DNA of 64,000 nucleotides, taken from contig NZ_KQ031391.1 in assembly GCF_000966285.1 (NCBI RefSeq), positions 3,445,208 through 3,509,207 on the forward strand, in the 5' to 3' direction. The notes under the pieces were generated by a model. The model was not told where the DNA came from. It ran no database searches and worked only from the letters and a program-made list of their open reading frames with translations. A program made the position numbers and the translations under genes. Origin of the DNA: Pseudofrankia sp. DC12 (GTDB lineage: Bacteria; Actinomycetota; Actinomycetes; Frankiales; Frankiaceae). Position 1 is the first letter of the stretch. Every line of letters begins with the position of its first letter. This document shows positions 13,676 to 30,517 of this stretch, piece by piece.

Positions 13676-13689
13676 ACGGACGCCCTCCG

Positions 13690-14756: not shown

Positions 14757-16289
14757 TCAGTCCGCGTCCCGGGCCAGTCGGAAGCCGGCGAAGATCTGCC
14801 GGCGGATCGGGTGATCCCAGTTGCGGAACGTGGCCCTGGCCGCGCTCGGGTCGGCGGCCCAGGAGCCCCCTCGCAGCACCCGGTAGCTCTTGAACTGTTG
14901 GTCCGGGTCGGAGTCGGCCCCGCCGGCTTCGCCGGGGCCACGGAAGAAGACCTCGCTGTACTCCCGGTACGGGAAGGAGGCGAAGCCCGGGTACGCGGTG
15001 AAGCCGCTCGCCGTCCACTCCCAGACGTCGCCGATGAGCTGCTCGACTCCGCTCGCGCTCGCGCCGGCCGGGTAGGCGCCGAGGGGCGCCGGCCGGGCGG
15101 CGCGATGGCCCAGGTTCGCGTGCGCCGCCGTCGGCGGTTCGTCGCCCCACGGGAAGCGACGCGACCGGCCGGACGCCGGGTCGTGGGCGCACGCCTTCTC
15201 CCACTCGGCCTCGGTCGGCAGCCGCCGCCCGGCCCAACGGGCGTGCGCCTCGGCCTCGTACCAGCAGACGTGCTGCACCGGCTCGTCGAGCGGGAGCGCC
15301 TCGTCCCGGCCGAACCGGCGGCGCGACCAGCCGCCCGCGCCGTCGCGGCGCCAGAACAGCGGGGCTTCCAGCCGCTCGCGGCATCGCCACGCCCAGCCAG
15401 CCGGTGACCAGAGCCGTTCGTCGTCGTAGCCGCCGTCGTCGAGGAACGCCAGATGCGCCCGGTTCGAGACGGGTAGCCGGTCGATCCGGAAGGCCGGTAC
15501 GACGACCCGGTGGGCCGGGCGCTCGTTGTCGTAGGCCCATGGGTCGGTGCTGGTGCCCATCGTGAACGGCCCGGCGGGTACGAGGACCTCACCGCCGGCC
15601 GGCCGGCCGGCAGGCAGCTCCACGCCCTCGTCGACCAGCGGGCCTGGGTCCGGCTGGGCCAGGGTCGCGGTCGCCAGCTGCAGCGTCGCGAGCAGCGTCT
15701 CGTCGTGCTGGTGCTCGTGCTGGACGACCATGCCGTAGACGAACCCGCCCGTCAGCAGGCGCGTGACCTGATCCTCCCGCTCGCCGGTGGGTGGGCCCGG
15801 GACGGTGACGCCTCCGTCGAGGGCACGGGGGGCCAGGGTGGCCATGGCGTCCAGGACCCGGGCGCGGACGTCGGCGATGTAGCCACGCGCGCGGTCCGGG
15901 GGCAGCAGCGGGAGAGCCGGCCGGTCGGCCCGCGGGTGGCGGAAGGCGTCGTACAGGTCGTCGATGCCCGGCAGGACCGGGTCGGCGCCGGTCAGCGCGC
16001 GAAGCAGCCAGAGCTCCTCGTAGTTGCCGATGTGCGCCAGGTCCCAGACCAGCGGCGACATCAAGGGGGAGTGCTGGCGCACGAGCAGGGCGTCGTCGAG
16101 GTCCGTATACGTCAGCGTCCGGCGCCGGCTGCGATCGAGGGCCTCGGCCCATCCAGCGGGGTCGGCCGGTACGGGCGCCGGGTGGAATCCGCCGGCGGTC
16201 GGTCCGGCGGGGAAGCCCGTTGTCTGAGCAGCGGCCGCTGGTTCGGCCGTCGTTGGTCCACGGCGTGGCGACGCCGCCGATCCCGCCAT
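14757..16289 (-). CDS. egtB: Hercynine oxygenase EgtB
   Basis: Non-haem iron sulfoxide synthase joining gamma-glutamylcysteine to hercynine with oxygen. Domains: N-terminal DinB-like iron-binding region with His in WDLAHIGN and the HEHQH motif (i and i+4 histidines) that together supply the three-histidine iron site, and a C-terminal FGE/sulfatase-modifying-like domain ([56 protein letters not shown]). I place the start at ATG 16289, where GGACGGAG lies six bases upstream; the frame continues to 16382, which would add 31 residues. Downstream of egtA with a 211-base gap, upstream of egtC. Confidence 0.92.
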
Positions 16290-16500
16290 CTGCATCTCCG
16301 TCCGACAGGGACCGGTCCTGCCTGCTGGTCGCCAGGGGGTCTTTTCGTGGCTCTCGACCGGTCGCGGGTCCGCTTCGGGCATCCACCGCCCTACGGACGC
16401 CCGTGATCAGCTAAACACCGCGAACTTCTGCTTCATCCTTGATGTGACCAGATTCTGGAAAGTTGACAGAGACCGATCTCGGCGCCGAGCCGCCGGTTCC

Positions 16501-18105
16501 TCAGCGGAACTGGTCGCGCAGCAGGCCTGCGGGGCCCACCTGGGTGAAGCGGTCGGCCAGGTCGTCGGCCGGGGTGCGGCCGCGAGCCGGGTAGCGGTCC
16601 CGGAACCGGGCCACGGCCGCGCGAGTGCTCTCGTCGGCGCCCAGGCGGACCAGAGCGTCCTGCGCGAGGTCGACACAGCTGAGGGCGGCCCGGCGCAGCG
16701 CGTCGTCGCGCAGGCCGAAGGCGCTGGCCTGCCGCCAGCCTTCGTCGGCCCCGCGGCAGGCGGCCAGCGCCCCGGCGGCGGCGACCGGGTCGTCCAGTAG
16801 CGCAGTGGTCACGGCTACGGGCACCAGCCAGCCGTCGCCCGGCTGCGCGTCCAGGTAGCGGATCTCCAGCCAGCCGCGGGGGCGGACCGGCGGGAAGATC
16901 GTGGTCGAGTGCAGCACCAGGTCCTCGTAGGCCGGCGGACGGTCCGTCGGGCCGGCGCCGCGCAGCCAGTCGCCGAACGTCGTGCCGTCCCGCACGGCGA
17001 CCAGCCGCGGCTGGCGGCTCGGACCGGTGCGGGAGCCAGGCCCATTGCCGGGTCCCCAGCCGGCCGAGGCGCCGGCCTCTCGATCGGCGTCCGGCCCGAC
17101 GTCGATCATCATCAGGCGGGCCGCGAGCAGGTAGTCCGCCCAACGGTCGGCGAGGTCGGCCGCGGCCACCTGCATGGGGCCGACCTGGACCGTCCTGGTC
17201 GGGTCGAGCGACTCCCACATCCGGGTCCGGGCCGAGCCGAAGCCGGTCAGCGTGCCCAGCCGGGCCGGCGACGCGGCGAACATCGCGACCAGCACCGGCC
17301 GCAGCCGGTGGGCGAGCCGCCAGCGGCGGACGATGTCGGTCGGGTCGGCCCCCGCATCCAGGTTGACCTGCACGGACGCGCTGGAGCACATCATGATCCG
17401 GCCGGCGTCATGGCCGCTGGCCGCCCAGTAGCCAGCCATCGAGGCGTAGCGGTCGTCGGTGAGCCATCGGGTCGGCGGGCGAAGCGGGTCGAGCCCGAGC
17501 CCGGCCAGGGCCAGGCCGGCGTCGGCGAGGGCGGCCCGAACCTGGGCCAGATCCGCCCGTACCGCGTCCAGCGCGGCCGACAGTGGCAGTGGCGGGCCCG
17601 ACAGCTCCAGCTGCCCTCCCGGCTCGAACGTGAGCCGGCTGCCGCCGGCCAGCACGGCACCGGTCACGTTCAGCACGGCACCGGTCACGTTCAGCGCGGC
17701 TCCCGGCCCGTCGGGCGCGGTAGAGCTAGGCCCGGCCACGGCGGCGCCACCACACCCGGTGGCGAGGAGGGTGGCCAGCGCCGCCGACGTCCGCTCCGGG
17801 GGCACCGGCGCGTCGCTCGCGGCCCGGTCGACGACCAGCCACTCCGTCTCGACGCCGACGGATCGCGGCCCCGGCCGGGCCGGCAGGCAGCCGGCCGCGA
17901 ACCGCAGCACGTCGTCGACGGTCAGGCCGGCGAGCGAGCGGTGCCGGGGACCGCGTGGCCCGGTCGGGCGCCTGGTCGTGAGCCTGGACGGCCCGGCGGG
18001 CCGGGTCGCCACGCCAGGGGGCGCGGTCGTGGGCCGGCCGGGCGTGGGCATCGGCCGCGTGCTCGCCGGCGCGGCGGAGGGCGCCGAGATCGGACGGGGT
18101 GGCAT
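16501..18105 (-). CDS. egtA: Glutamate-cysteine ligase EgtA
   Basis: ATP-dependent ligase making gamma-glutamylcysteine, a co-substrate of EgtB. The 534-residue protein shows the GCS2-type features GVETEWLVVD, FEPGGQLELSG, RIMMCSSASVQVNLD and ARLMMIDVGPD. Start is ATG 18105, because GGGAGGAATTC sits directly upstream; the frame is open for another 80 residues but lacks such a site. The first 60 residues are Pro/Arg/Thr-rich and not conserved. First gene of the operon egtA-egtB-egtC-egtD, the mycobacterial order, but no egtE-like PLP lyase follows egtD. Confidence 0.9.
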   Translation of the reverse strand: MPPRPISAPSAAPASTRPMPTPGRPTTAPPGVATRPAGPSRLTTRRPTGPRGPRHRSLAGLTVDDVLRFAAGCLPARPGPRSVGVETEWLVVDRAASDAPVPPERTSAALATLLATGCGGAAVAGPSSTAPDGPGAALNVTGAVLNVTGAVLAGGSRLTFEPGGQLELSGPPLPLSAALDAVRADLAQVRAALADAGLALAGLGLDPLRPPTRWLTDDRYASMAGYWAASGHDAGRIMMCSSASVQVNLDAGADPTDIVRRWRLAHRLRPVLVAMFAASPARLGTLTGFGSARTRMWESLDPTRTVQVGPMQVAAADLADRWADYLLAARLMMIDVGPDADREAGASAGWGPGNGPGSRTGPSRQPRLVAVRDGTTFGDWLRGAGPTDRPPAYEDLVLHSTTIFPPVRPRGWLEIRYLDAQPGDGWLVPVAVTTALLDDPVAAAGALAACRGADEGWRQASAFGLRDDALRRAALSCVDLAQDALVRLGADESTRAAVARFRDRYPARGRTPADDLADRFTQVGPAGLLRDQFR

Positions 18106-18503
18106 GAATTCCTCCCGGGACCGGTCCCGCCGCGCTGACACGGGCGGGAGCTGGCGTTCGGGGCACGGTTCGGAACCTTCCACGTCGGACGCGGGAGCGC
18201 GACCGCCCGCCGGTCGCCAGGTACCCGGCGTGGCGGGCGGCCCGCTCACCCCCGGCTCGATACACCCGGACCGGGGCGGATAAACCGGCGGAGCCTGGCT
18301 TTTGGGCCGACCGGACGGGACGTTCGAGCCCGCGAACCAGGTCAAGCGGGACTGCTGGTCAACCAGTGTGCAATACGTGTGCCACCCTTGGCTTACCGTG
18401 AGGATTCGATGGAATGCTGGTCATCGGACCAGGAACTGCCGATAGCACGTGGTGACCGCCTCGCGGCAGAATCGTGGCACGTGGTGCTGGAAGGTGGTGG
18501 CGG
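18106..18503. other. Intergenic region between egtA and the NERD gene
   Basis: 398 bases between divergent genes, so it should hold promoters for both. It includes an open extension of the egtA frame (to 18345) that I consider untranslated, and a short palindrome CTGGT-CA-ACCAG in 18354-18366. No clear -10/-35 pair could be assigned. Confidence 0.4.
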
Positions 18504-19386: not shown

Positions 19387-21495
19387 CTAGTAGCTCTGGT
19401 AGCCGGGCGGGACGCGGACTCCGGTGCCGTCGGGCTCCTCGTCGTCGCGGTAGGCCGAGACGTCGAAGCCGTCCTCCAGCTCGGCGTCGGCGGCCTCGTC
19501 GAGGATCGCCGGCTCCCAGTGGCCGGCGAAGTCCTCGGGGCCCATGCCCGGCGGGTCCAGCTCGCGCGGGTCGAGGTCCTCGGGGGTGAGGTTGATGTCG
19601 TCGACCTCGCCGTGCATCTTCGAGCCGTTGAGAACGACCGGGATCTCCATGTCGCCGACGACGTGCTCGACGTAGAAGGCCCGCTGGCCGATCAGCCAGA
19701 GCGCGAAGCCCGGGTCGAGCCGGGGGAGCAGGTCGGCGGCGACGTCGGTCAGCCCGAGCGCCTCCTGGGTCGCGGCCACCTGGTCGGTGGCCTGCTTGTA
19801 GAGGATGCGGGTCGACGTCTCGGCCAGCAGGCCCTTGGCGATCTCCACCGAGTCGGGCGAGGCGGAGAGCAGGTCGGAGATCCGGTGGGCGACGATCGCG
19901 TTCGCGCAGCCCCACTGCCGGGCGAGCTTCTGCTGCGCGGACAGGCGTCGGACCAGGCCGGCGAAGCGCATCAGCCGCCAGCACTCGTCGTAGACCACGT
20001 AGCGCTGGACGCCGTCCTGGCGCATCAGCGCGGCCTCCATCCAGCCCTGCGCGCAGGTCATGATCAGCGCGATCATCTCGTCGGAGCCCTGGACCCGCTC
20101 CAGGTTCAGCACCGCGATCGGCTTGTCGAAGTCCAGCGGCGACGTCGTCGGGCCGTCGAACAGCCCACCCAGGGCGCCGGTCGTCAGCCTGCGCAGGGTG
20201 AGGGTCGCGTCCCGGGAGGCGTCGCGCAGCTCGACGGCGGTCATCGGCAGGCCGGTGCAGTCCGCCTCGGCCGGCTCGGTCATCGCGTCGAGGACCTGCC
20301 CCAGCAGGGGCGTCGCCCAGCGGTCGGTGGTCGCGCCGGTGATCTGCCGGGAGACGACGTCGAGGGCCAGGTCGATCGCGGTGTGCTCGGGCGGGGTGAG
20401 CGGCACGCCCTTGGCCGTCTCGATCAGCGACGCGAGCAGCGACGACCGGGCGCGCTTCACCTCACGGGCCCAGTCATGGTCATGGATGCCACGCGGCCGC
20501 GGTGGCGCGTCCAGCGGGTTCAGCCGGGTCGACATGCCCGGGCCGATGTAGGTCGGCTCGCAGCCGAGCCGGCGGGCCAGCCGGGTGTACTCGCCCTTCG
20601 GGTCGCACGGGACCGCGGCCTGGTACCCGAACGCGGCGCCGCGTGACATCAGCGTCTTCAACAGGGACGACTTGCGCGAACCGACCGCGCCGAACACCGC
20701 GAAGTTCGGGTTCTCGATGACCTGCTGGCGGTAGAGCTCGAAGACGTCGAACACGAACGAGTTGCCGGACCAGACGTGCCTGCCGATGAACATGCCCGGC
20801 GCGTCCAGGCCGGAGTCGACGACGAACGGGTAGATCCCGGCGATCTGCGCCGTCGTCTCCATGTGCGCCGGCAGCCGCAGCTTGTGGAAGGTCTGGCCGC
20901 GGAACGGGCCGTGCGGCTGGGATGGCTGAGCCCCTCGGCGCGCCGTGGACTGGGCCCGCCGGGCCGCCGCGCGCTCGGCCGCCGCGGCCGACTTCTGCGC
21001 CCGGCGACCGGACCGGGCCGAGCCTCGGGCCGGCCCGCCCGCCCGCCGGCCGCGGCCGCCAAGGTCGTCGACGTAGCCGCCGGCGTCCCGGCCCGGGTCG
21101 TAGTCCGGTGGGCGGACCGGCACGCGGGCGGCCGGGGCCGCGACCGGCCGGCCGTCGACCGTCAGGTCGTCCTGGCGCACGACGACGCCATAGCCGCCAG
21201 GCTCGCCCTGGTCGGCGGGGCCGAGCTGGTAGTCGGCGTCGGTGTACTGGTCGTCCGGGTAGTCGTCGTCGACGTCCTGGGCGTCGCCGTAGCCGTTGGG
21301 CGTCAGGTTCTGGTGGCCGGGCTCGTGGACCGCGGGCACGTACGGGTCTGAGTCCCCGGCGGCCAGGTACGGGCCGGCGTCCCCGGCGGCCAGGTACGGG
21401 CCGGCGTCCCCGGCGGCCAGGTACGGGCCGGCGTCCCCGGCGGCCGCATACGGGCCGGTGGTCGTGGCCGGGTCAGGCGGGTCCTGCGCGGTCAC
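19387..21495 (-). CDS. VirB4/TraC-like secretion ATPase
   Basis: Probable motor ATPase of a type IV secretion-like machine. The 702-residue protein has about 200 N-terminal residues of low complexity, including four GPYLAAGDA-type repeats (24-48) and a basic Ala/Arg region, then the ATPase: P-loop GAVGSRKSS (269-277), LNPLDAP (326-332), Walker B RYVVYDECWRLM (498-509) and IVAHRISDL (about 529-537), a pattern typical of VirB4/TraC proteins. The P-loop has Arg where GxxxxGKS requires Gly before the Lys; codon CGC differs from GGC by one base. The start GTG overlaps the upstream stop as GTGA, so translation is coupled to the SCO6880-type gene. Last gene of the minus arm. Confidence 0.85.
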   Translation of the reverse strand: MTAQDPPDPATTTGPYAAAGDAGPYLAAGDAGPYLAAGDAGPYLAAGDSDPYVPAVHEPGHQNLTPNGYGDAQDVDDDYPDDQYTDADYQLGPADQGEPGGYGVVVRQDDLTVDGRPVAAPAARVPVRPPDYDPGRDAGGYVDDLGGRGRRAGGPARGSARSGRRAQKSAAAAERAAARRAQSTARRGAQPSQPHGPFRGQTFHKLRLPAHMETTAQIAGIYPFVVDSGLDAPGMFIGRHVWSGNSFVFDVFELYRQQVIENPNFAVFGAVGSRKSSLLKTLMSRGAAFGYQAAVPCDPKGEYTRLARRLGCEPTYIGPGMSTRLNPLDAPPRPRGIHDHDWAREVKRARSSLLASLIETAKGVPLTPPEHTAIDLALDVVSRQITGATTDRWATPLLGQVLDAMTEPAEADCTGLPMTAVELRDASRDATLTLRRLTTGALGGLFDGPTTSPLDFDKPIAVLNLERVQGSDEMIALIMTCAQGWMEAALMRQDGVQRYVVYDECWRLMRFAGLVRRLSAQQKLARQWGCANAIVAHRISDLLSASPDSVEIAKGLLAETSTRILYKQATDQVAATQEALGLTDVAADLLPRLDPGFALWLIGQRAFYVEHVVGDMEIPVVLNGSKMHGEVDDINLTPEDLDPRELDPPGMGPEDFAGHWEPAILDEAADAELEDGFDVSAYRDDEEPDGTGVRVPPGYQSY
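21361..21458. repeat. 27-bp in-frame tandem repeat in the VirB4-like gene
   Basis: Three identical 27-base units at 21361-21387, 21388-21414 and 21415-21441, then a diverged fourth. On the minus strand each encodes a nine-residue GPYLAAGDA-type unit in the N-terminal linker, so length variation stays in frame. Confidence 0.88.
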
Positions 21496-22994
21496 GAGAC
21501 GCCCACTGCGAGCGGCAGCGCGCCGACGTTGAAGCCCTGGTCCTGCTCGCCCACCAGGCGCACCATCTCCAGCCGGCTGCGCGAGGCCAGCGTCTCCGCC
21601 TCGCCGCAGGCGTCGGCGAGGCTGTCCAGGTCGTCCGCGGACACCGTCACGAAGCCGTGGAAGCGGAACGCGCCGAAGCCGGCGACCAGCTCCTGCTCGC
21701 GGCGCTCCACCTCGTCCGCCTCGGTGGCGTCCCGCTGGGTCGTCACCTTTCCGATCTTGTCTCGCATCTGCTGTTCGCCGAGGTGCGCCATCCGGCGGCG
21801 GTTGACCGCCTTCTCGGCCTTGCGGCCCGGCAGCGGCTCGACCACCAGCGAGACCGTGCGCCGGCAGGTCGTCTCCATCAGCAGCGGGGCGAGGAACGCG
21901 GCCGGCGACGGCACCCGAGGCCAGCCGTTGATCCAGTACGTGGTGTGGAAGCCCGAGTCGGTTCGGTAGTGGTCCCAGGCCGCGACCGCGCGGACCGGGC
22001 CGGCGACGGCCGGGTCGATCCCGGACGGCAGGCCCTTCAGGCCACCGGCCAGGTCGGTGGACGCGCCACCGCGGGCGTCGATCATGTCGACCGAGTACGG
22101 GTCGTAGGTGGTGCGGATGACGGCCGCGAGGGCCCGCGGCGGCAGCCAGCCCACGGTGCTGATGGAAGCCCTGGCGAGGGCGGCCTCCATCGTGCGCAGC
22201 TCGCCGAGCAGCACCGCGCAGGCGGCCCGGTCGCCGCCGCCGGCCCGTTGGATCGCCCTTCGGGCGTCCCTGGCCCGCAGCTGGAACGACAGGAAGGTCT
22301 CGTGCCTCTGTGCCACCGGACCGGCCGCGTCGATCACCTCCTGGTAGGCCTGCGCTGCCCACGAGTCGTCGTGGTGCCCACGGACCCGCCAGTGCCGCTG
22401 CAACTGGTCGCCCGAGTCGGGCAGGGTGCGCTCCAGCCACTGGATCCGGGCCAGCCGCCCGCCGCCGGACGTCAGCCCGGCGAGCAGCTCGCCCCAGGCG
22501 TCCACTCTGGCCTGCTGGTCACCCGACTCCAGCAGCGCGAACTGGCTGCCCTGGACCTGCAGGACCGCCGTGTAGGTCTGCTTGCCGGTGTCCTTGACGA
22601 CGGCCACGTAGCGGCCGTTCCCGACCGGCACCGACAGCATGACGAGGCTCGCCAGGGGTCCGGGCAGCACCGTCCTCGTGATCTGGTCCTCGTCCGGCCT
22701 GAGCCGGAACACGCCGCCACGGAACACTGTCTCGCCCGTCACCTTCTGCATCGTGTAGCCGAACAGAATCGGCACCCACTGGTCGAGACTACGGTCCTCG
22801 ACCCGGACGAACGCCACGAAACCCAGTGCCACCGCGACCAGCAGCCAGGCCGGCGCCAGCAGCACCGGTGAGCGCAGCGCGCCGATGACGCAGACCATCA
22901 CCCCGACCAGCAGGCCGAGCTGTGGCCAGCGCAGGCCGAGCAGGATCCCGCCGCGTTCCAGCGGGCCGAACCGATAACTGCGTTCCGCGACCAT
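21492..22994 (-). CDS. SCO6880-type membrane protein (PrgI/VirB3 plus VirB4-N-like)
   Basis: The 500-residue protein resembles the SCO6880 family of actinobacteria, usually encoded next to a VirB4-like ATPase. Residues about 20-65 hold two close membrane segments like PrgI/VirB3; the remainder (EDRSLDQWVPILFGYTMQ, then PVGNGRYVAVVKD and a long alpha/beta region with CRRTVSLVVEPLPGRKAEKAVNRR) resembles the non-ATPase N-terminal part of VirB4. This suggests that the VirB3/VirB4-N portion and the ATPase portion are split between two coupled genes. ATG 22994 begins MVAERSYRFGPLERGGILLGL. Its stop overlaps the next start by four bases; 174 bases separate it from the VirB6-like gene upstream. Confidence 0.78.
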   Translation of the reverse strand: MVAERSYRFGPLERGGILLGLRWPQLGLLVGVMVCVIGALRSPVLLAPAWLLVAVALGFVAFVRVEDRSLDQWVPILFGYTMQKVTGETVFRGGVFRLRPDEDQITRTVLPGPLASLVMLSVPVGNGRYVAVVKDTGKQTYTAVLQVQGSQFALLESGDQQARVDAWGELLAGLTSGGGRLARIQWLERTLPDSGDQLQRHWRVRGHHDDSWAAQAYQEVIDAAGPVAQRHETFLSFQLRARDARRAIQRAGGGDRAACAVLLGELRTMEAALARASISTVGWLPPRALAAVIRTTYDPYSVDMIDARGGASTDLAGGLKGLPSGIDPAVAGPVRAVAAWDHYRTDSGFHTTYWINGWPRVPSPAAFLAPLLMETTCRRTVSLVVEPLPGRKAEKAVNRRRMAHLGEQQMRDKIGKVTTQRDATEADEVERREQELVAGFGAFRFHGFVTVSADDLDSLADACGEAETLASRSRLEMVRLVGEQDQGFNVGALPLAVGVS

Positions 22995-23168
22995 GACCCC
23001 TATTCCAACGCAGTCCTAGTAGAGCAACGCTGCCAGCCCAACGCTGCGGGCGACCGGCCGGTCGCCGAGCGGCCCGGACGCGTCGCCGCGGGTCCGCCCC
23101 GGGCCGGTGGGACCGGCCGGGCGCGCCCTGGAACGCTCGTCGGCCGGCGCCCGGCGGTGGCGCGGCGG

Positions 23169-24542
23169 TCAGCCGCCGCCATGGCTGGTTCCGCCGGGCA
23201 CCCGCGGCCTGGTCGGGGGCGCCACCGGTAGGCGCGCGGCCGGGGTCGCGCGGGCCGCCGGGGCCGCGGTGTGGGACGTGACGGCCGCCTGGGTGGTTGC
23301 GCGAGGTGCACTGACGCGGGCGGGCATCCGGGCCGCCGGGGCCCGCGCGGGAAGGGCCGTGCGGCCGCGCACGGCGCTGGTTCCCGCGCCGACCCCGCCC
23401 GTGCTGGCCGCGATGGCTGGACGTCCGACGCGAGGACGGCCGCCGACCCCCGGGCGTACGGTGCCGGGCCGAGCCGCTCCAGGGCGTCCGGCGCGGACGG
23501 CCGGACGAGCCGAGCCACCGCCGCCACCGGCGGACACGCCGGCCGGGATGGCGTCGCCGAGGACGCCTCGGTTGCGGGTCTGCAGCCGGGCGCCGATGCC
23601 GCGGAAGGTGTCCCGGGAGGTGGAGCCGAGCAGGGCGCCAGCGCCCTGGCCGAACGAGGCGGCGCCGCGCCGGCCCGCGCTGCCGACCGCGCGCATCAGA
23701 TGGACGTCGGCGAAGCCGAACAGCTGTACGAGAAGGAACGGCGAGAAGACGGCGGCGATCATCACGACCACGCCGCCGAGAATCGTCAGCGTCTGGTCGG
23801 CGGCCGAGCCGGTGTTGTCGCTGGCCATTCCCGCGCCCAGCGTGAAGATCGCATAGATCACCGGCTTGGCGAAGATCAACGCGATCAGGAACTCGGTGGC
23901 CCGCTTCATCCACGCGCTGGTCGACATCGACGGCTGGCCCGCCAGGTAGAGCGGGATGAACACGGCCATCGCGATGATCGCGACCTTACGGATATAAAGA
24001 ACGACGAACAGGGCGAACGAGAACAACGCCACCAGTAGGGACAGCACCATGTCCAGTGCGAAGTTTCCCTGTTCTGGCAGGGATCTGAGCTGCCCGACCA
24101 GGCTCGCGCCGAGCGGCTGTCCGTCTCCGAAGGCGTCCGCCATGCCGTCGGACGCGGTAAGCACCATCTGTAGGAGCGTCAGCGCGATGAACGAGCCCAG
24201 AATCGCGGTTCCGGTCGCCGCGGCCGCCCGGGCGAAGATGTGGGGGTCGCCGCGTACCGCGCCCATGATGCACGCGCACAGGAAAAGGCCGGTGACGACC
24301 AGCACCGAGACGCCGAACACGATGTTGTAGTTCTTCACCACGTAGTCGGCCCGCAGGTCAACGGCCGTCTTCTGCGCCGCGAAACTGAACACCGACGACG
24401 AAAGATCCGCCGCCATGTTACAGAACGCTGTACCAATAGAACTCAGAAAAGAATCCGCAGTCCCGGTAATTGCGTCTTTCAATGGTGCGACCGGATCGAA
24501 TCCAATAGCGAGGGGCTGTGATTGCGACGGGATCATGGTCAT
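23169..24542 (-). CDS. VirB6/TrbL-like polytopic membrane protein
   Basis: Likely channel component of the type IV-like machine. The 457-residue product has about six hydrophobic segments between residues 65 and 290 (for example VFGVSVLVVTGLFLCACIMG, MVLSLLVALFSFALFVVLYI, IIAMAVFIPLYLAGQ, ILGGVVVMIAAVFSPFLLVQLF), then about 160 residues of Gly/Ala/Pro/Arg-rich tail. This TM core plus disordered C-terminus is the VirB6/TrbL pattern in Gram-positive systems. The start ATG overlaps the preceding gene's stop as ATGA (translational coupling). Its first 45 codons are unusually GC-poor, continuing a patch in the neighbour. Confidence 0.8.
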   Translation of the reverse strand: MTMIPSQSQPLAIGFDPVAPLKDAITGTADSFLSSIGTAFCNMAADLSSSVFSFAAQKTAVDLRADYVVKNYNIVFGVSVLVVTGLFLCACIMGAVRGDPHIFARAAAATGTAILGSFIALTLLQMVLTASDGMADAFGDGQPLGASLVGQLRSLPEQGNFALDMVLSLLVALFSFALFVVLYIRKVAIIAMAVFIPLYLAGQPSMSTSAWMKRATEFLIALIFAKPVIYAIFTLGAGMASDNTGSAADQTLTILGGVVVMIAAVFSPFLLVQLFGFADVHLMRAVGSAGRRGAASFGQGAGALLGSTSRDTFRGIGARLQTRNRGVLGDAIPAGVSAGGGGGSARPAVRAGRPGAARPGTVRPGVGGRPRVGRPAIAASTGGVGAGTSAVRGRTALPARAPAARMPARVSAPRATTQAAVTSHTAAPAARATPAARLPVAPPTRPRVPGGTSHGGG

Positions 24543-25339
24543 GCGGAGGGACCCCCGATGTAAAAGAAACGACGAAAATCTTCCCCCGGCCGTTGGGTGA
24601 TCGATGGTCCATCAGGGCCGTCGGTTGCGGCGGAAAGCTTCCAATCCCCGGTCGTCCACGTTACAGTACAGTCATCGGATCCCCACACCTCGCGTGGAGC
24701 GGTCGTCGCGTCGTTGCTTGCGTACATTCCAATTCCACCGACCGACCAGATCGATATGGTCGCCGAATTAGCTGTTGATGATTTTGCGCTGAACCCGACA
24801 ACTCTGAGATTAAAATTCAATCTCGGATCGGAAATTGAATTTGCACCCGCAGTCTTGGTATTAGTGTCGTCGGCCTTAATTATCTGATCGCTAATCGACT
24901 TGCTGGCGCTGTCGGTTGCGATCGAACCAAGAACAGCCTTGATGCGGGTTGGTTCGCGGTTGCGGACGTCGCTGTAGGCCGAGACGTAGTTGCCGCAGGC
25001 GCTGATGGCGCCGGGCTCGGTGTGGGGATAGCCGACGGGGATGCCGAACTCGTTGACCCGGCTCGGCGCGCCTGGCAGGGCGCCGACGGGTCCGGCGGTA
25101 TTGTCGGCGCCGTCAGAAGTCGCCGACGGCACCACGGTCACGACGGTCGCCGGTGGCGACGGCTGGGAGGTGGCACCTGGCAGGGCGCTGTTCCCTCGGC
25201 TCTGATTCTGGGATGAACGGCCGAGGGTGTAGTAACCGATGGCGATGCCAACGGGAACGCCGACCACGAGTGTCGCGAGACACGTCCCCGCGGCTACCAG
25301 GGCCAGTCGCCTGGCGGCCCACCCCGTGACGCTAACCAC
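24539..25339 (-). CDS. Membrane-anchored, VirB8-like extracytoplasmic protein
   Basis: A 266-residue protein with one N-terminal membrane helix (about 12-36, after a short basic start), a Ser/Pro/Thr-rich linker (45-90) and a soluble domain (about 100-266) containing GNYVSAYSDVRNREPTRIKAVLGS and, near the end, DDCTVTWTTGDWKLSAATDG. This layout is that of VirB8/TcpC-like (NTF2-fold) components, but sequence likeness is weak, so the assignment is positional. The part encoded by 24560-24900 uses codons rare in this genome (AGA, ATA, AAA, TCA, AAT) and is GC-poor. Start (complement of 25337-25339) gives VSVTGWAARRLALVAAG. Overlaps the next gene by four bases. Confidence 0.65.
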   Translation of the reverse strand: MVSVTGWAARRLALVAAGTCLATLVVGVPVGIAIGYYTLGRSSQNQSRGNSALPGATSQPSPPATVVTVVPSATSDGADNTAGPVGALPGAPSRVNEFGIPVGYPHTEPGAISACGNYVSAYSDVRNREPTRIKAVLGSIATDSASKSISDQIIKADDTNTKTAGANSISDPRLNFNLRVVGFSAKSSTANSATISIWSVGGIGMYASNDATTAPREVWGSDDCTVTWTTGDWKLSAATDGPDGPSITQRPGEDFRRFFYIGGPSA

Positions 25340-25405
25340 GTACTTCCCCTCCCTGACGGCAGGGACATCATCCCAATACCGGCCCGCCGGTACCCGGAGA
25401 ACGTC

Positions 25406-25828
25406 TCAGGAGGATGCGGAAGGTTCGTCATGGACCACGGCGGGGTCGTCCACGGTTCGGACGATGGCGGGTGGTCGCATGCCGTTCGTGGGGCCAGCCT
25501 TCGGTGTCCCGGAGGACGCGGTGCTGCCGGTCGCGAGGAAGAAGTTGACGAGCGCTGCGGCCGCGCCGACCAGGAATGCCAGGCCGAACCCGGCGAGCAC
25601 CCCGCTCTTGCCCATGGACGACGCCCGGTCCAGGCCCATCCGTTCGCCGAGTGCCCAGGCGATGCCGCCGAGCAGCACAGCCGCGACCGCGGCGATGATG
25701 GCATAGGCCGCCAGGCCGTTGACCAGGTCTTTCAGCGCGTTGATTCCTGGTGCCTTCGTCTCATCTGGCTTGACCTGAACCGACGCGAGCAGCACTGTCG
25801 CCCGCGCGGACGCGGCGTCGACGATCAT
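25406..25828 (-). CDS. Small two-helix membrane protein (VirB2/pilin-like position)
   Basis: A 140-residue protein with two hydrophobic segments (about 38-57 and 78-97) separated by a short polar loop, and a Pro/Thr/Asp-rich tail. Size, two-helix topology and location between a MinD-like gene and VirB6/VirB8-like genes resemble the VirB2/TrbC pilin slot of type IV systems, and similar small proteins accompany SCO6880-type genes. There is no obvious long signal peptide. ATG 25828 has GGGAAGGG just upstream, deciding the start over more upstream codons of the frame. 66 bases before the VirB8-like gene, so likely cotranscribed. Confidence 0.65.
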   Translation of the reverse strand: MIVDAASARATVLLASVQVKPDETKAPGINALKDLVNGLAAYAIIAAVAAVLLGGIAWALGERMGLDRASSMGKSGVLAGFGLAFLVGAAAALVNFFLATGSTASSGTPKAGPTNGMRPPAIVRTVDDPAVVHDEPSASS

Positions 25829-25889
25829 CGTAGTCCCTTCCCATGGGCACTTCGCCCTACTACGGCCCGGAGACCGCAGGTCTGGCGAA

Positions 25890-28007
25890 TCATACGACGG
25901 GTGTCCGGAGCGTTTCCGGAGTGCTCCCGCGAGTCGCGTCGGCTGCCGTTGCGTGTGTCTTGACCGTTTCTTCGGCGGCAAGCCGAAGCAGGGACTCCAC
26001 CACTGCCACACCGAGCCGCAGATACGACCGGCGAGTACTCGCGCGCAGCCTCGGGATGCGAATTGGCGCACGCTTGCTCGGGTCCAGCCGGCTTTCGTAC
26101 GGAATCCTCACGACGCTGTCGACTTGCCGCGCCAGCCGGCCGGCGGCCGCCCGGGTACGCGGTGACCAGCGGCCCCGCCGCGGTGAGACGACGGCGACGA
26201 TCACCGGCGGTCGGCGGCCGTCCTTGTCGACGGGCAGGAGCGGGGCGGCCGGATCACGCAGCGCGGCGGCGGTGCGGTCCAGGTCGGCCGGAGCGGCGAG
26301 GCTGACGACGACGATGAGGTCGGCGGCCCGCAGCGCGGTCGGCGACAGCGGTGCGGCGACGGGCGCGTCCACCAACACCAATGGGTAGGCGCGGGTCAGC
26401 TGGCCGAGTGCGGTTCGCAGCATCCCGGGTGTCACGGTGTCATCCGCCGGGACCACCGCCGCGCCGCCCCCGGGCGCCTGGCTCCGGCTCAACGGCACCA
26501 CCTCCAGCGCCGGTGTGCCATCACCGGAGGAGCGCAGCAGCGCACGCAGGCCGGCGGCCGCGCCGTCCCGCCGGCGGGCGACGTCGGCGACCGTGACGTC
26601 GCCGGCCAGTCCGACCCGCGGGCACAGCGGATCCCCGCGGGGTTCCTCAGGCTCCTCGTCTGGCCACACGGACGGGCACAGATCGAGGGCGAGCACCGAC
26701 TCGCCGCGGGCACCGGCCAGTACGAGCCCGAGGATGCCGACGAGGGTCGTCGTCCCCGAGTACGGGAACGCGGAGGTGATCCCGATCCGCCACGAGCCGG
26801 GCAGGTCGACCGCGGCCCGGTCGGGCAGCGACTCCCGCAGCGGGATCTCGTCCCAGTCCGCGAGGCCGTCCTCGTCGTCCCAGTCCCAGTCGTCGTCCGT
26901 GACCGCGGGCAGCGCGAACCGCCGGGCGACGGCGGAGCCGGGGACGGCCGGGAGCGTCGAGTGTCCGGGCTCCGCCACCGGGTGATCCGGCTCGGCCGAG
27001 GCCGCGGGCGGTGGAGTCCAGGCGCCGGGCTGGCTGGGTGCACCCGGTCCGGCAGGCCGGGACCGCCCGTCAGCCGGCGCCGGCTTGGCGAGCCGGGGGG
27101 GCTCTGTGAACCTCGGTGGTTCGGTCGGTCGGGCCGGTTCGGTCGGCGCGGTCGGGCGCGACCGGGCGGGCGGCGGGATGGTCCACGGCCCAGGAGCGGG
27201 CTGCGCCGAGGGCTCGGCCGTGCGGGTGGCCTGGCCGCGCGCCGCCGGTCTCGGCGGCTCGGGTGCCAGCGGCGGATGGGCCGGTGCCGCGGCACCCGGC
27301 GCCGCGCGGTCGCCGGGCCGGCTGGGCGGTGCCAGCACTGGCGGTGGCGTCGCCGGGGGCCGGGGTGGCATCCGGCGCCCGATCGGCGGCGTGGCGGGCT
27401 CGTCGTCCGGGTCGGCCGGATCGCCCGGCGCGGCGGCGTGTGGTGTTGCCGGCAGCCAGCCGGTCCGCGGCTGACGGGCTGGGGGCGGGCCGGGCGCCGG
27501 GCGCGACGAAGCGGGCCGGGCGGGCCCGGGCGGCTGGGCCGCCGGCGGCGACGCAGAGTGAGGCGACGGAGCGTAGGTGGACGGCGGGAGTGGCTGGGTG
27601 GGCCCCTCGATCCGGATCGACGGCTCGGGTGCGGCCGTCGTCTCCGCGCCGGCCGGCTCGGGCCCGTCCGCCGGCCGGTCGGTGCGGCGGGCTGGACGGT
27701 CGCTGACCGTGTCCGTTGGCCGGCCGGCGACGACGTGCGGCCGTGGGTCGCGGGCCGGTGGCAGCGGGACGGTCGGCCGGTCGTCCAGGTGAAACGCCTC
27801 GTCGCCCTCGGGGGCGGCGCCGTCGTCGGAGCGCCGGCGGTGGCGGCGCCGGCTGCGGCTGCCGCGTGAGTCGCCATCCCGGTCGAGGCGCGGGTCAGCG
27901 TCGTCCTCACCGGCCATGGGCCCGGTCGCGGAGATCTGCGCGCCGATGAGAGATACCGGTCGCGCGTCGCCCTCCTCGCCGTACGGTGTCGGTGGCACAT
28001 TGCTCAC
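25890..28007 (-). CDS. MinD/ParA-like protein with long Pro-rich N-terminus
   Basis: A 705-residue protein. Residues 1-430 are low complexity, rich in Pro, Ala, Arg and Thr, with an Asp/Glu/Trp-rich patch (DDDWDWDDEDGLADWDE) before the C-terminal domain. Residues about 440-690 look like a MinD/ParA-type fold: RIGITSAFPYSGTTTLVGI, SVLALDLCPS, LVLVDAPVA and ADLIVVVSLAAP. The deviant Walker A of this family (KGGxGKT) is replaced by FPYSGTTT, with both lysines missing, so ATP hydrolysis is questionable. Architecture recalls EspI of mycobacterial ESX loci (Pro-rich plus MinD-like), a resemblance only. GTG 28007 has AGGAGG ten bases upstream. First gene of the minus arm. Confidence 0.75.
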   Translation of the reverse strand: MSNVPPTPYGEEGDARPVSLIGAQISATGPMAGEDDADPRLDRDGDSRGSRSRRRHRRRSDDGAAPEGDEAFHLDDRPTVPLPPARDPRPHVVAGRPTDTVSDRPARRTDRPADGPEPAGAETTAAPEPSIRIEGPTQPLPPSTYAPSPHSASPPAAQPPGPARPASSRPAPGPPPARQPRTGWLPATPHAAAPGDPADPDDEPATPPIGRRMPPRPPATPPPVLAPPSRPGDRAAPGAAAPAHPPLAPEPPRPAARGQATRTAEPSAQPAPGPWTIPPPARSRPTAPTEPARPTEPPRFTEPPRLAKPAPADGRSRPAGPGAPSQPGAWTPPPAASAEPDHPVAEPGHSTLPAVPGSAVARRFALPAVTDDDWDWDDEDGLADWDEIPLRESLPDRAAVDLPGSWRIGITSAFPYSGTTTLVGILGLVLAGARGESVLALDLCPSVWPDEEPEEPRGDPLCPRVGLAGDVTVADVARRRDGAAAGLRALLRSSGDGTPALEVVPLSRSQAPGGGAAVVPADDTVTPGMLRTALGQLTRAYPLVLVDAPVAAPLSPTALRAADLIVVVSLAAPADLDRTAAALRDPAAPLLPVDKDGRRPPVIVAVVSPRRGRWSPRTRAAAGRLARQVDSVVRIPYESRLDPSKRAPIRIPRLRASTRRSYLRLGVAVVESLLRLAAEETVKTHATAADATRGSTPETLRTPVV

Positions 28008-28137
28008 GTGCCGTCGCCCTCCTGGCTGGTTCAGGCCGGTTGGCCCCAGTTGGGATTTCTTACCGTCACTTGCGGCGGGCCGCCACCAGATTCGGATAAC
28101 CCGGGACGTAGAAGTATGACAAGCTCCCACAGAGCCT

Positions 28138-28149
28138 AACCATGGTTAC
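28138..28149. promoter_or_regulatory. Palindrome TAACCATGGTTA in the divergent control region
   Basis: A 12-base perfect palindrome inside the 292-base gap (28008-28299) between the divergent MinD-like and helix-turn-helix genes. It is well placed as an operator for both arms of the secretion locus, possibly bound by the adjacent HTH protein. Nothing else in the gap could be assigned. Confidence 0.45.
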
Positions 28150-28299
28150 CTGGGGTGGTACACCGTCCGTCACCATCAATGGGCGTCGACCACGTCGTTG
28201 CCGCCCTGATGCAGGGGGTGCTGCCGGGCTCCTGAGGGGACGCGCGACCATGCAAGCGGAATCCGCGACCGCCTGACCCGCGCGAAAGGGGCAGCCGCT

Positions 28300-28584
28300 A
28301 TGCAGGAGGGTGTCCCGACGGCGCATGAGGGCGTATCGGCCGTCCCGTCTCCCCAGCGCCTGGAGCCCAAACGGCGGCTCGACCCGTCCGCTCGCCATGA
28401 GCCGCCTCAGCGCCAGGACGACGACGACGTTCTGACCGTGGACGAGCTGGTCGTCTGGCTGCGGCTGTCCGAGAGCACCGTGTTGCGGCTCCTGTCCGAG
28501 CGGGCCATTCCGGCTCGCAAGGTGGGGCATCAGTGGCGGGTCCGGCGCGGCCGGGTCCGGGACTGGTTGGACGGCCGCGAGTGA
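28300..28584 (+). CDS. Excisionase/MerR-type helix-turn-helix protein
   Basis: A 94-residue DNA-binding protein. The disordered first 40 residues are followed by LTVDELVVWLRLSESTVLRLLSERAIPARKVGHQWRVRRGRVRDWL (from about 45), the HTH_17/excisionase pattern in which a MerR-like helix-turn-helix precedes a beta-wing. Such proteins are either excision factors or local regulators; no integrase or attachment site is visible, so a regulator of this locus is the better guess. The stop overlaps the next start (GTGA). First gene of the plus arm, divergent from the MinD-like gene. Confidence 0.82.
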   Translation: MQEGVPTAHEGVSAVPSPQRLEPKRRLDPSARHEPPQRQDDDDVLTVDELVVWLRLSESTVLRLLSERAIPARKVGHQWRVRRGRVRDWLDGRE

Positions 28585-29330
28585 TCCCGGGCGCCGTCGA
28601 GGTCAGGCCGACGCTGCCGACGGGCCCGGCCCCCCGCGTTGCCTGGACCGGGCGCCTGGCCTGCCTGCGGAGGCGGGGACCCGCGCTGGCCCCGAAGATC
28701 GGGGTCACGGTTGTCACCGTGGCCCTGATGATGGCCGGATGCTCGTTGCCGGGTGGCTCGGGGCAGCGGGCGACACCCTCGGCCCGGCCGGCCACGACGG
28801 GGCCACCGCCCGGCGCGAGCCAGGCCCCCGGCCCCCCGCTCGCGACCGCTTCGGCCGCCCCGAACGCGACCACACCGCCGGCCGGCTCGGACCCGGCCGC
28901 CGTCGCCACCTACTGCTTCGCTCGCTGGCAGACCTTCGACGCGCGCACCGACGCGAGCCTCGGCGCCGGCGTCCAACGTGCCGCCGCCGACCAGTGCTTC
29001 ACTCCCGACTTCCTCGGCCAGCTGGCCAGCGGCACCGGAACCGGAGCGTCGACCCCCGACGCGGGCGCCGGGCCGGCCTGGGAGGACCTTCGCGCCCACG
29101 GCGCCCACTCGACCGTGACGGTGCTCGCCGCGACCCCGCTCGGCGACACCGCCGCGACCGGCCGGGTCGTGTACCTGCTCAATGCTCGCAGCGACTACGC
29201 GTCCGACAACGCCACGGCGACCCAAACCGTCTCCACTCCGACGGTGACGCTGCTGCGCGATACCGCCGGCCGCTGGCGGATCGCCGGCGCCGACCTGTCC
29301 GCCAGCGCGGGCGACGCGCCCGGGCGCTAG
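28581..29330 (+). CDS. Secreted lipoprotein of the type IV-like locus
   Basis: A 249-residue protein with a signal segment ending in the lipobox MMAGC (Cys at about 54), a Pro/Ala/Thr-rich linker to about 105 and a folded domain (YCFARWQTFDARTDASLGAG, DQCFTPDFLGQL, STVTVLAATPL, VTLLRDTAGRWRIAGADL) whose end resembles the strand pattern of VirB8/NTF2-like domains. It may pair with the VirB8-like protein at 24.5-25.3 kb. Start GTG 28581 overlaps the HTH stop by four bases; an internal start nearer the signal sequence is possible because the first 35 residues are not typical of a signal peptide. 15 bases precede the next gene. Confidence 0.68.
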   Translation: MIPGAVEVRPTLPTGPAPRVAWTGRLACLRRRGPALAPKIGVTVVTVALMMAGCSLPGGSGQRATPSARPATTGPPPGASQAPGPPLATASAAPNATTPPAGSDPAAVATYCFARWQTFDARTDASLGAGVQRAAADQCFTPDFLGQLASGTGTGASTPDAGAGPAWEDLRAHGAHSTVTVLAATPLGDTAATGRVVYLLNARSDYASDNATATQTVSTPTVTLLRDTAGRWRIAGADLSASAGDAPGR

Positions 29331-29345
29331 AGGAGGCGGACGTAG

Positions 29346-30341
29346 ATGGCACGGGGGCGGCTCGGCCGGCGTCGCTGGATGCTGTGGCTCGGCGGCGGCG
29401 GGCTGGTGGCGGTCGGCGGGATGATCCTCTTCATCTGCCTCGTCGTGCTGCTGATCGCCGGGCCGTTCCTGGGTAGCAGCGACAACAACGGGCCGCACAC
29501 GATCGTCAACTCGAAGGGCATCCCGGCCGAGTACCTGGATCTGATCGTCTCGGCGGCGAACGACGCGGGCTGCCCCGAGGTGACCCCGGCGCTTTTGGCC
29601 GCGCAGCTCTACCAGGAGTCCGGCTTCAACCCGCGGGCCTCGTCGCCGGTCGGGGCCATGGGCATCGCCCAGTTCATGCCGGCCACCTGGGCCGCCCATG
29701 GCGGCGGTGGCGACGTGTGGAACCCGGCCGACGCGATCCCGGCCGCGGCGCGGTACGACTGCGCGGTCGCGGCCTCGGTGGCGGCGGTGCCCGGCGCCGG
29801 CCAGGAGAAGATGCTCGCCGCCTACAACGCGGGCCCGGGGGCCGTACTGGCCTTCTCCGGCCTGCCCCCGTTCCCGGAGACCCGCAACTATGTCCGCACG
29901 ATCCTGGCGAAGGCGCGCGAGTACGGCGACGACCTCGTGGCGGGGGCGATCGTCTCGGCCGAGGCGGTCGGGCCGGTGGTCGCGTTCATGCGCTCGCAGG
30001 TGGGCAAAGCGTACGTCTGGGGTTCGGTCGGCCCGGACACCTGGGACTGTTCGTCGCTGGTCCAGGCGGCCTACCGGGCGATCGGCCTGCAGCTGCCACG
30101 GGTGACCACCGAACAGCTGGCCGCCGGGCCACAGGTCTCCGGCGCGGACATCCAGCCGGGGGACCTGCTGTTCATTCCGGGCAGCGACGGCACGGTTGCC
30201 GCGCCGGGGCACGTGGGTATGTACGTCGGCGACGGCCAGGTGATCGACGCGAAGGGCGCCCGCTGGGGCGTCGTCGTCTCGGACATCTCAGCCTGGACCA
30301 ACGTCGTCGCCGTAACCAGACCCCTAGCAGGCAAAGCCTAG
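29346..30341 (+). CDS. VirB1-like cell-wall hydrolase: SLT transglycosylase plus NlpC/P60
   Basis: Bifunctional peptidoglycan hydrolase of the kind that opens the wall for secretion machines. The 331-residue protein has an N-terminal membrane anchor (about 14-42), a lytic transglycosylase domain (about 60-190; catalytic Glu in AAQLYQESGFNPRASS, then GAMGIAQFMPATW and AAYNAGPGAV) and an NlpC/P60 endopeptidase domain (about 215-331; Cys in DTWDCSSLVQAAYR, His in APGHVGMYVG). Both catalytic sets look intact. AGGAGG at 29331-29336 precedes ATG 29346. The same two-domain design occurs in Gram-positive conjugation systems (for example TcpG/VirB1-type proteins). Last gene of the plus arm. Confidence 0.9.
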   Translation: MARGRLGRRRWMLWLGGGGLVAVGGMILFICLVVLLIAGPFLGSSDNNGPHTIVNSKGIPAEYLDLIVSAANDAGCPEVTPALLAAQLYQESGFNPRASSPVGAMGIAQFMPATWAAHGGGGDVWNPADAIPAAARYDCAVAASVAAVPGAGQEKMLAAYNAGPGAVLAFSGLPPFPETRNYVRTILAKAREYGDDLVAGAIVSAEAVGPVVAFMRSQVGKAYVWGSVGPDTWDCSSLVQAAYRAIGLQLPRVTTEQLAAGPQVSGADIQPGDLLFIPGSDGTVAAPGHVGMYVGDGQVIDAKGARWGVVVSDISAWTNVVAVTRPLAGKA

Positions 30342-30360
30342 AGCAGACGGACTGCTCGAG

Positions 30361-30430
30361 CCATGACGAGCCATGACGAGCCATGACGAGCCATGACGAG
30401 CCATGACGAGCCATGACGAGCCATGACGAG
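30361..30430. repeat. Seven exact 10-bp tandem repeats CCATGACGAG
   Basis: Seven identical units occupy 30361-30430, starting 19 bases after the stop of the transglycosylase/NlpC gene; an eighth, broken unit (CCGTC...) follows. A 10-base period places each unit on the same helical face. Non-coding and not a multiple of three. Confidence 0.95.
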
Positions 30431-30517
30431 CCGTCTCTTGCTCAAGCGAAGATCAGCCAAGGTACCGGCCCTGGAGCAGCGTCTACCTCGGTCGTCTCCA
30501 CCAACCCAGATTCACGT

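What the first reader, a model, noticed from the sequence alone, without database searches (positions are those of the whole stretch)
19387..30341. Divergent chromosomal type IV secretion-like locus without relaxase or coupling protein
Seen: nine genes in two divergent arms encode a VirB4-like ATPase, an SCO6880-type VirB3/VirB4-N-like protein, a VirB6/TrbL-like membrane protein, a VirB8-like anchor, a small two-helix protein, a MinD-like protein, a HTH regulator, a lipoprotein and a VirB1-like transglycosylase/NlpC hydrolase, with start-stop overlaps at several junctions. Known: these are the membrane-core parts of Gram-positive conjugation machines. Not seen: relaxase, VirD4/TcpA-type coupling protein, integrase or att repeats, although the locus is complete between flanking unrelated genes. 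Inference: a resident secretion or surface apparatus of unknown substrate rather than a conjugative element. The MinD-like protein with a Pro-rich arm could take a targeting role. Individual families are known in actinobacteria; the function as a system is, as far as I know, not described.
Basis: partly seen in the sequence, partly recalled or inferred. Interest (0 to 1): 0.82.

Follow-up and report, generated by a model that had tools for sequence, protein, structure and literature searches.

The report
Resident conjugation-like machine in Frankia relatives
A Frankia-like bacterium keeps, at one fixed place in its chromosome, the membrane half of a DNA-transfer machine without the parts that select and pump DNA, and a similar machine in Streptomyces is needed for normal spore formation, so this is probably a recycled conjugation apparatus now used for the cell's own development.

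Summary
The nine genes are real and collinear in 19 of 22 family loci fetched; the other three are cut by contig ends. The SCO6880-type (VirB3/VirB4-N) protein is found at 84-100% identity in 31 of 35 family genomes and is under strong purifying selection. VirB4 matches a solved VirB4 by sequence; the VirB8 model matches T4SS VirB8 structures best. No relaxase, VirD4 coupling protein or integrase was found near it; 5 of 19 genomes have the locus and no VirD4 hit at all.

New here: Streptomyces CmdA is a VirD4 homologue without a P-loop; Frankiaceae VirB4 has an invariant Gly-to-Arg change in Walker A (23 of 23); its MinD-like protein lacks a canonical P-loop. Trees do not settle whether the two resident systems share an origin. 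Best reading: a domesticated conjugation apparatus, probably developmental; a new variant of a known kind.

The parts
19387..21495 (-). VirB4-type motor domain (C-terminal half of VirB4), Walker A GAVGSRKS with Arg in place of the Gly before Lys; Frankiaceae counterpart of CmdB
   Evidence: NCBIfam CD1110 VirB4 E 8e-20, below cut-off; solved VirB4 4ag5 E 2.5e-9; CmdB profile E 1.3e-36; Walker A alignment
21492..22994 (-). SCO6880-family protein: VirB3-like N-terminus plus VirB4 N-terminal part; counterpart of CmdC
   Evidence: NF042935 E 2.2e-112; CmdC profile E 1.2e-22; 31 of 35 family genomes; dN/dS 0.02-0.09
23169..24542 (-). VirB6/TrbL-like membrane protein (SCO6881 family); counterpart of CmdD
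   Evidence: NF047967 E 1.8e-11, below its cut-off; CmdD profile E 4.5e-10
24539..25339 (-). VirB8-like membrane anchor with NTF2-like domain; counterpart of CmdE
   Evidence: CmdE profile E 3.3e-18; model residues about 90-244, first 25 rows by Z all from T4SS entries, best Z 13.3
25406..25828 (-). small protein with two hydrophobic stretches (by eye), in the position of CmdF
   Evidence: read from sequence; conserved in family loci; no significant profile match to CmdF
25890..28007 (-). MinD/ParA-like protein with about 400-residue Pro-rich N-terminal arm and degenerate P-loop (FPYSGTTT)
   Evidence: only weak family matches
28070..28125 (-). conserved intergenic element holding AGTATGACAAG (28113-28123, + strand), read on the - strand as a promoter-like TTGTCA for the leftward operon
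   Evidence: 10-base core in 18 of 19 family loci; one match in the window against 0.08 expected with one mismatch; promoter role inferred, consensus scan found none
28300..28584 (+). HTH_17 DNA-binding protein
   Evidence: PF12728 E 7e-10; core 91-100% identical in 19 family loci including the window
28533..29330 (+). lipoprotein (lipobox LMMAGC by eye); true start may lie further in
   Evidence: highest dN/dS of the ten genes measured
29346..30341 (+). membrane-anchored SLT lytic transglycosylase + NlpC/P60 hydrolase; counterpart of Streptomyces TgdA (SCO4132)
   Evidence: PF00877 1.1e-20, PF01464 1.3e-14; TgdA alignment E 1.4e-61, 42% over 269 columns

Best explanation
The locus is a chromosomally resident, non-conjugative derivative of an actinobacterial conjugation machine. 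It keeps the membrane core (VirB3/B4/B6/B8) and a peptidoglycan hydrolase and has lost the relaxase and the VirD4 coupling protein. It most likely works like the Streptomyces Cmd-TgdA system: an envelope complex that, with local peptidoglycan opening, supports hyphal differentiation, septation and chromosome partition, not DNA export. Shown: gene set, collinearity, component homology, no relaxase/VirD4 near the locus, purifying selection, the Cmd phenotype in Streptomyces (published). Inferred: that the Frankiaceae version serves development, and that the degenerate MinD-like protein stands in for the coupling protein as the cytoplasmic docking part.
For: 31 of 35 family genomes hold the SCO6880 gene at 84-100% identity; nine genes collinear in 19 of 22 loci; dN/dS 0.02-0.09 for that gene against three congeners. 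Five of 19 family genomes (G001, G009, G011, G012, G022) have no PF02534 or PF12696 match; G009 and G022 also have no TrwC, and all five no PF03432. By contrast eight related loci (in G008, G046, G052, G136, G148, G152, G160, G168) have VirD4 and TrwC within about 41 kb. One-to-one profile matches to CmdB, C, D, E and TgdA, the other 58 of 63 pairs at E 0.028 or worse. Streptomyces order F-E-D-C-B-A in 59 of 60 loci that hold all six, and tgdA divergent upstream in all 30 of 75 cmdF loci in which it was found. cmd deletions impair sporulation, septation and segregation but not transfer of an SLP2-derived plasmid. The cmdA deletion looked like wild type and CmdA is a VirD4 homologue without Walker A, which fits a machine that works without a coupling protein.
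Against: Orthology with Cmd is not shown: a reduced VirB4 tree joins them weakly (82/76), the fuller VirB4 and SCO6880 trees do not, the SCO6880 test gives AU p 0.209 and the concatenated tree separates them, AU p 0.085. By identity the closest loci outside the family (36-42%) are not Cmd (27-30%). Streptomyces needs an intact CmdB lysine (K90; authors allow that the mutants were unstable), while the Frankiaceae VirB4 has an altered Walker A, so the two may not work alike. MinD-like, HTH and lipoprotein have no Cmd counterpart; small protein versus CmdF is not significant. SCO6878 and SCO6881 mutants, of a second related Streptomyces cluster, had no phenotype. No expression or phenotype data for the Frankiaceae genes were seen. 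FtsK/TcpA-like coupling proteins elsewhere were not searched.
Confidence: 0.5

Rival explanations
1. A resident protein-secretion system: the core exports one or more Frankiaceae proteins (perhaps symbiosis-related), with the MinD-like protein or lipoprotein taking the substrate-recruiting role of VirD4.
For: Membrane core plus hydrolase, no DNA-processing genes found beside it; a 2024 exoproteome paper on Parafrankia reports 'Type II/IV secretion' proteins up with root exudate (PMC11093716, passages), but its accessions were not matched to this locus.
Against: No candidate substrate gene recognised at the locus; VirB4 Walker A is altered in 23 of 23 family sequences; the comparable Cmd system shows a developmental phenotype.
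Confidence: 0.22
2. A fixed remnant of a conjugative element (a defective ICE) with no present function.
For: Several related loci carry TrwC and VirD4; motor motifs are altered. A survey of a Streptomyces population lists a defective ICE near mid-chromosome in all strains (PMC9513070, passages), perhaps cmd (not tested).
Against: Present in 31 of 35 genomes with dN/dS 0.02-0.09 for the SCO6880 gene; no integrase among scanned ORFs and no bracketing repeats; SCO6880 frame intact in 29 of 31 genomes, split in G015 and G024.
Confidence: 0.1
3. Still a DNA-transfer machine, using a relaxase and coupling protein encoded on mobile elements elsewhere in the genome.
For: TrwC occurs in 14 of 20 family genomes tested and PF02534 in 14 of 19; the own genome has several of each.
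Against: Five of 19 genomes have the locus without any VirD4 hit, two of them also without TrwC; some of the mobile elements carry their own T4SS genes (L069, L077); cmd deletion did not change transfer of an SLP2-derived plasmid.
Confidence: 0.12

Closest known systems
cmdABCDEF (SCO4126-4131) plus tgdA (SCO4132), Streptomyces coelicolor
   Same: Counterpart genes in the order small protein-VirB8-VirB6-VirB3/4N-VirB4; SLT/NlpC gene divergent and upstream where found (30 of 75 loci, 0.4-5.8 kb away); no TrwC in five of seven Streptomyces genomes tested, and in the other two it lies on another contig
   Different: Streptomyces keeps CmdA, a VirD4 homologue without P-loop, has no recognised MinD-like, HTH or lipoprotein counterpart and has GK in VirB4 Walker A; common origin not resolved
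Conjugative T4SS loci of actinobacteria with SCO6880-type proteins, e.g. L077 in a Frankiaceae genome
   Same: SLT/NlpC divergent from VirB8, SCO6880-family and VirB4 genes in L077; a MinD-like and a small protein there by eye
   Different: L077 carries VirD4 (PF12696 1.9e-25) and TrwC relaxase (7e-84); AU tests reject joining the resident locus with L073/L077
Type VII secretion EccE / Pro-rich MinD-like (EspI) proteins
   Same: SCO6880 protein matches the EccE model (TIGR03923, E 7e-10; 9.2e-12 in L043); a Pro-rich MinD-like protein as recalled for EspI
   Different: EccE score is far below its cut-off (38 versus 108 bits), while SCO6880 is at 2.2e-112; Cmd (L075) and L077 proteins gave no EccE match at E 0.01; no other ESX core gene among scanned ORFs; EspI likeness is recalled, not tested

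Membership tests
Conjugative (DNA-transfer) T4SS / ICE | Relaxase linked to the apparatus | tested here: not met
   TrwC hits in family genomes lie on other contigs or at least about 250 kb from the locus; no PF03432 in 10 genomes
Conjugative (DNA-transfer) T4SS / ICE | VirD4-type coupling protein linked to the apparatus | tested here: not met
   PF02534 and PF12696: nearest hit in the own genome about 540 kb away; none in five of 19 family genomes
Conjugative (DNA-transfer) T4SS / ICE | TcpA/FtsK-like coupling protein | not tested
   FtsK-type proteins elsewhere in the genome were not searched
Conjugative (DNA-transfer) T4SS / ICE | Integrase and att repeats | tested here: not met
   No integrase family among 30 scanned window ORFs; no bracketing direct repeats
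T4SS superfamily (membrane core) | VirB4 ATPase homology | tested here: met
   CD1110 VirB4 E 8e-20, below cut-off; 4ag5 E 2.5e-9
T4SS superfamily (membrane core) | VirB8 fold | tested here: met
   First 25 rows by Z are from T4SS entries, nearly all named VirB8-type, Z 13.3 to 10.3; the best unrelated NTF2-like row has Z 10.3; Foldseek by E-value ranks other NTF2-like folds first
T4SS superfamily (membrane core) | VirB3 and VirB6 components | tested here: inconclusive
   SCO6880 family strong, PrgI weak 0.044; SCO6881 E 1.8e-11 below cut-off; structure model of the SCO6880 protein was poor, pLDDT 42
T4SS superfamily (membrane core) | Canonical Walker A in VirB4 | tested here: not met
   G-to-R before the lysine in 23 of 23 family rows; GK in 30 of 30 other rows with letters there, one row gapped
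Cmd-TgdA system | Counterparts of CmdB, C, D, E and TgdA in the same order | tested here: met
Cmd-TgdA system | CmdF and CmdA counterparts | tested here: not met
   Small protein versus CmdF not significant; no VirD4-like gene at the locus
Cmd-TgdA system | Common descent apart from conjugative loci | tested here: inconclusive
Cmd-TgdA system | Developmental phenotype | not testable with these tools
   Needs a deletion strain

The most novel reading that the evidence does not exclude
Two mycelial actinobacterial lineages separately recruited the same kind of conjugation apparatus into a developmental envelope machine and in both disabled the DNA pump: Streptomyces kept a coupling protein without a P-loop, while Frankiaceae lost it, changed the VirB4 Walker A and use a MinD-like protein with a dead P-loop as the docking part. 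A T4SS-derived complex would then work without a canonical DNA-translocating motor.
Probability: 0.27. Interest if true: 0.82.

Novelty: new variant of a known kind. Interest (0 to 1): 0.6.

Why it matters
T4SSs are known to have become effector injectors and DNA uptake or release systems (recalled); a core-genome version serving hyphal development would be another use. The comparison gives concrete predictions for the unexplained cmd phenotype: CmdA should not use ATP and should be dispensable, as its deletion suggests, while the VirB4, VirB8 and hydrolase parts should not be. In Frankiaceae it marks one conserved, testable candidate for development or host interaction.

Tried and rejected
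Conjugative element as the present role: rejected because relaxase, VirD4, integrase and att repeats were not found at the locus and it is kept in 31 of 35 family genomes.

Origin from the Frankiaceae mobile copy (L073/L077): rejected by AU tests (SCO6880 p 2.2e-64, VirB4 p 6.9e-10).

Type VII system: considered because of the EccE match; far below cut-off. A profile of the SCO6880 alignment against solved structures gave only matches at E 0.045 or worse, and its model (pLDDT 42) was not used for a fold search. In the VIA list for the VirB8 model only listed rows are used; absence of a family there means nothing. The MinD-like domain found no significant PDB match (best 0.13). The promoter scan of 27900-28700 found no sigma-70 site, although a conserved element was found by k-mers.

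S. coelicolor itself was not among the 80 named loci, so identity of the Streptomyces locus with cmd rests on gene content and order, the tgdA neighbour and pst genes read by eye in L080 (SCO4142 = pstS and SCO4132 = tgdA from PMC6585502). In 45 of 75 cmdF loci tgdA was not found in the flank held.

Rows dropped: L060 was left out of all trees. The reduced trees used 11 of 23 family rows and left out L063, L068, L069, L098, L099; one search also left out L067 and L097.
Full report
What is there. The nine genes read by the first stage are present at 19387-30341 in two divergent arms. The leftward arm encodes a MinD-like protein, a small protein, a VirB8-like anchor, a VirB6-like protein, an SCO6880-family protein and a VirB4-type motor; the rightward arm an HTH_17 protein, a lipoprotein and an SLT+NlpC hydrolase. 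The SCO6880 and VirB4 genes match successive parts of the CD1110-type VirB4 model (207-362, weak, E 0.044; 373-728, E 8e-20; both below cut-off), so VirB4 appears split. The VirB4 gene's one PDB sequence match is a solved VirB4 (4ag5, E 2.5e-9). The VirB8-like model is confident only over about residues 90-244 (mean pLDDT 62 overall); the 25 best rows by Z are from T4SS entries (DotI 13.3, Rickettsia VirB8 12.1, pIP501 TraM 10.7, PrgL 10.3), the best unrelated row also 10.3, while Foldseek by E-value ranks other NTF2-like folds first and PrgL 20th. 'MinD-like' rests on weak matches.

It is a core feature of the family. The SCO6880 protein was found at 84-100% identity in 31 of 35 genomes of family f1, own genome included; G010, G013, G028 and G034 lack it and also lack a close VirB4. 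G010 is 63% complete and G028 and G034 have over 1000 contigs, but G013 is 94% complete, so a real absence there is likely. G015 and G024 have the gene split in two frames. All nine genes are collinear and divergent in 19 of 22 fetched loci; L042, L045 and L079 are cut by contig ends. In L049 only 3% of the MinD-like protein aligned. dN/dS between the window and three congeners is 0.02-0.09 for SCO6880, 0.04-0.15 for VirB6, 0.25-0.31 for VirB4, 0.09-0.28 for the hydrolase, 0.23-0.35 for VirB8 and 0.43-0.47 for the lipoprotein.

It has no DNA-processing partners nearby. PF02534 and PF12696 were both negative in 5 of 19 family genomes (G001, G009, G011, G012, G022); G001 and G012 are single contigs. 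TrwC was absent from 6 of 20 family genomes, among them G009 and G022; where present it lies on another contig or about 250 kb or more away. PF03432 was absent from all 10 genomes tested, with one of 14 controls positive. In the own genome VirD4-type hits lie at 1.38, 2.52, 4.02, 4.81 and 6.45 Mb, the locus at 3.47 Mb. Eight related loci (in G046, G052, G136, G148, G152, G160, G168, and the second Frankiaceae locus G008:C47; 35-40% identity) have VirD4 and TrwC within about 41 kb. Not all relatives do: the Streptomyces SCO6880-type loci of G051 and G119 have VirD4 24-27 kb away and no TrwC in the genome. FtsK/TcpA-type coupling proteins were not searched.

A Streptomyces counterpart has a known phenotype. 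A search for SCO6880 in the paper library gave one paper, PMC2782261, of which I read the abstract, the Results and passages. It describes cmdABCDEF (SCO4126-4131) of S. coelicolor. Deletion of cmdB or of all six delays and reduces sporulation and gives aberrant branches, irregular septa and 6-8% anucleate spores; the cmdA deletion looked like wild type; transfer of an SLP2-derived plasmid was unchanged; cmdB genes mutated at K90 or K404 failed to complement, though the authors allow that the proteins were unstable. K90 falls on the Walker A lysine in my alignment (inference). CmdB matches a Frankia VirB4-like protein; mutants of SCO6878 or SCO6881, from a second related cluster, had no phenotype. 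PMC6585502 (passages) lists cmdBCDEF and tgdA (SCO4132) as actinorhodin 'downmodulators' and cites a 2013 paper on SCO4132 in morphological differentiation, of which I saw only the title. In Streptomyces genomes I found the same arrangement. Of these 80, 60 had all six genes and 59 of the 60 were in order F-E-D-C-B-A. tgdA was found in 30 of 75 loci with cmdF, always divergent and upstream, 0.4-5.8 kb away; in the other 45 it was not found in the flank held. Comparing nine Frankiaceae with seven Streptomyces profiles (TgdA from two sequences) gave five significant pairs: VirB4-CmdB 1.3e-36, SCO6880-CmdC 1.2e-22, VirB6-CmdD 4.5e-10, VirB8-CmdE 3.3e-18, hydrolase-TgdA 1.4e-61; the other 58 were at 0.028 or worse, small protein-CmdF among them.

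Altered pumps. CmdA aligns over 459 columns with a profile of eight VirD4 proteins of relatives (E 1.5e-49), but where VirD4 of L077 reads GPARSGKT, CmdA reads APPAARYA, and its C-terminus is short (single-protein Pfam match TraG-D_C 6.6e-4, below cut-off). In the Frankiaceae VirB4 the glycine before the Walker A lysine is arginine in 23 of 23 rows; 30 of 30 other rows with letters there have glycine. The MinD-like protein reads FPYSG(T/A)TT in 16 and (G/R)GSGRTT in 4 (genus g3) of 21 rows; for L047 the motif was not displayed. What these changes do to ATP binding is inference.

Origin. The family rows form one clade (100/100) in VirB4, SCO6880 and concatenated trees. With Streptomyces Cmd they group weakly in a reduced VirB4 tree (82/76), not in the fuller VirB4 and SCO6880 trees; the SCO6880 test gives AU p 0.209, and the concatenated tree separates them (AU p 0.085). 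One or two domestications are both open, with long branches in play. Joining with the mobile Frankiaceae copy is rejected.

Regulation. An element with AGTATGACAA lies between the arms in 18 of 19 family loci and its 11-base form once in the window; read leftwards it gives TTGTCA, a possible -35. The consensus promoter scan found none.

Literature. Searches for SCO6880, Frankia with type IV secretion (25 of 35 listed), SCO4132, cmdABCDEF, SCO4127, Streptomyces with VirB4 and sporulation (12 of 23 listed) and EccE with VirB3/VirB4 (10 of 199 listed) showed no paper that, in listing or passages seen, links the Frankiaceae locus to Cmd beyond the CmdB-Frankia VirB4 match, or calls CmdA a coupling protein. 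Most subscription papers are not held. A 2025 T4SS review (PMC12857230, passages) has no occurrence of 'Frankia'.

Verdict. A resident, non-conjugative T4SS-derived apparatus is well supported (about 0.85); that it serves development is a reasoned extension from Cmd (about 0.5).

Noticed in passing
window 30347-30442: Head-to-tail copies of a 10-base unit (CGAGCCATGA) directly behind the SLT/NlpC gene.
   Followed up: no
window 21332-21466: 27-base repeats in the 5' part of the VirB4 gene give a 9-residue repeat (GPYLAAGDA).
   Followed up: no
window 24001-25000: GC falls to 58.6% against about 73% in most of the window, over the VirB8 gene and the start of VirB6; VirB8 also has the highest synonymous divergence of the ten genes measured in all three comparisons. 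Allele exchange is possible.
   Followed up: partly
window 12473-18345: Ergothioneine-type cluster (name recalled) next to the locus: Methyltransf_33, GATase_6, DinB/FGE-sulfatase and GCS2 genes.
   Followed up: no
L059 and L078, SCO6880 gene: In two genomes of genus g3 (G024, G015) the SCO6880 gene is split in two frames; real loss or assembly error.
   Followed up: no
L068, L070, L071 (own genome): Mobile-looking regions with several related proteins that share a PAG-W-L motif near the start, by eye; L070 and L071 hold VirD4-like genes.
   Followed up: no
window 21492-22994: The SCO6880-family protein matches the EccE model of type VII secretion at E 7e-10 over most of its length, below cut-off; a possible deep link between EccE and VirB3/VirB4-N.
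   Followed up: partly
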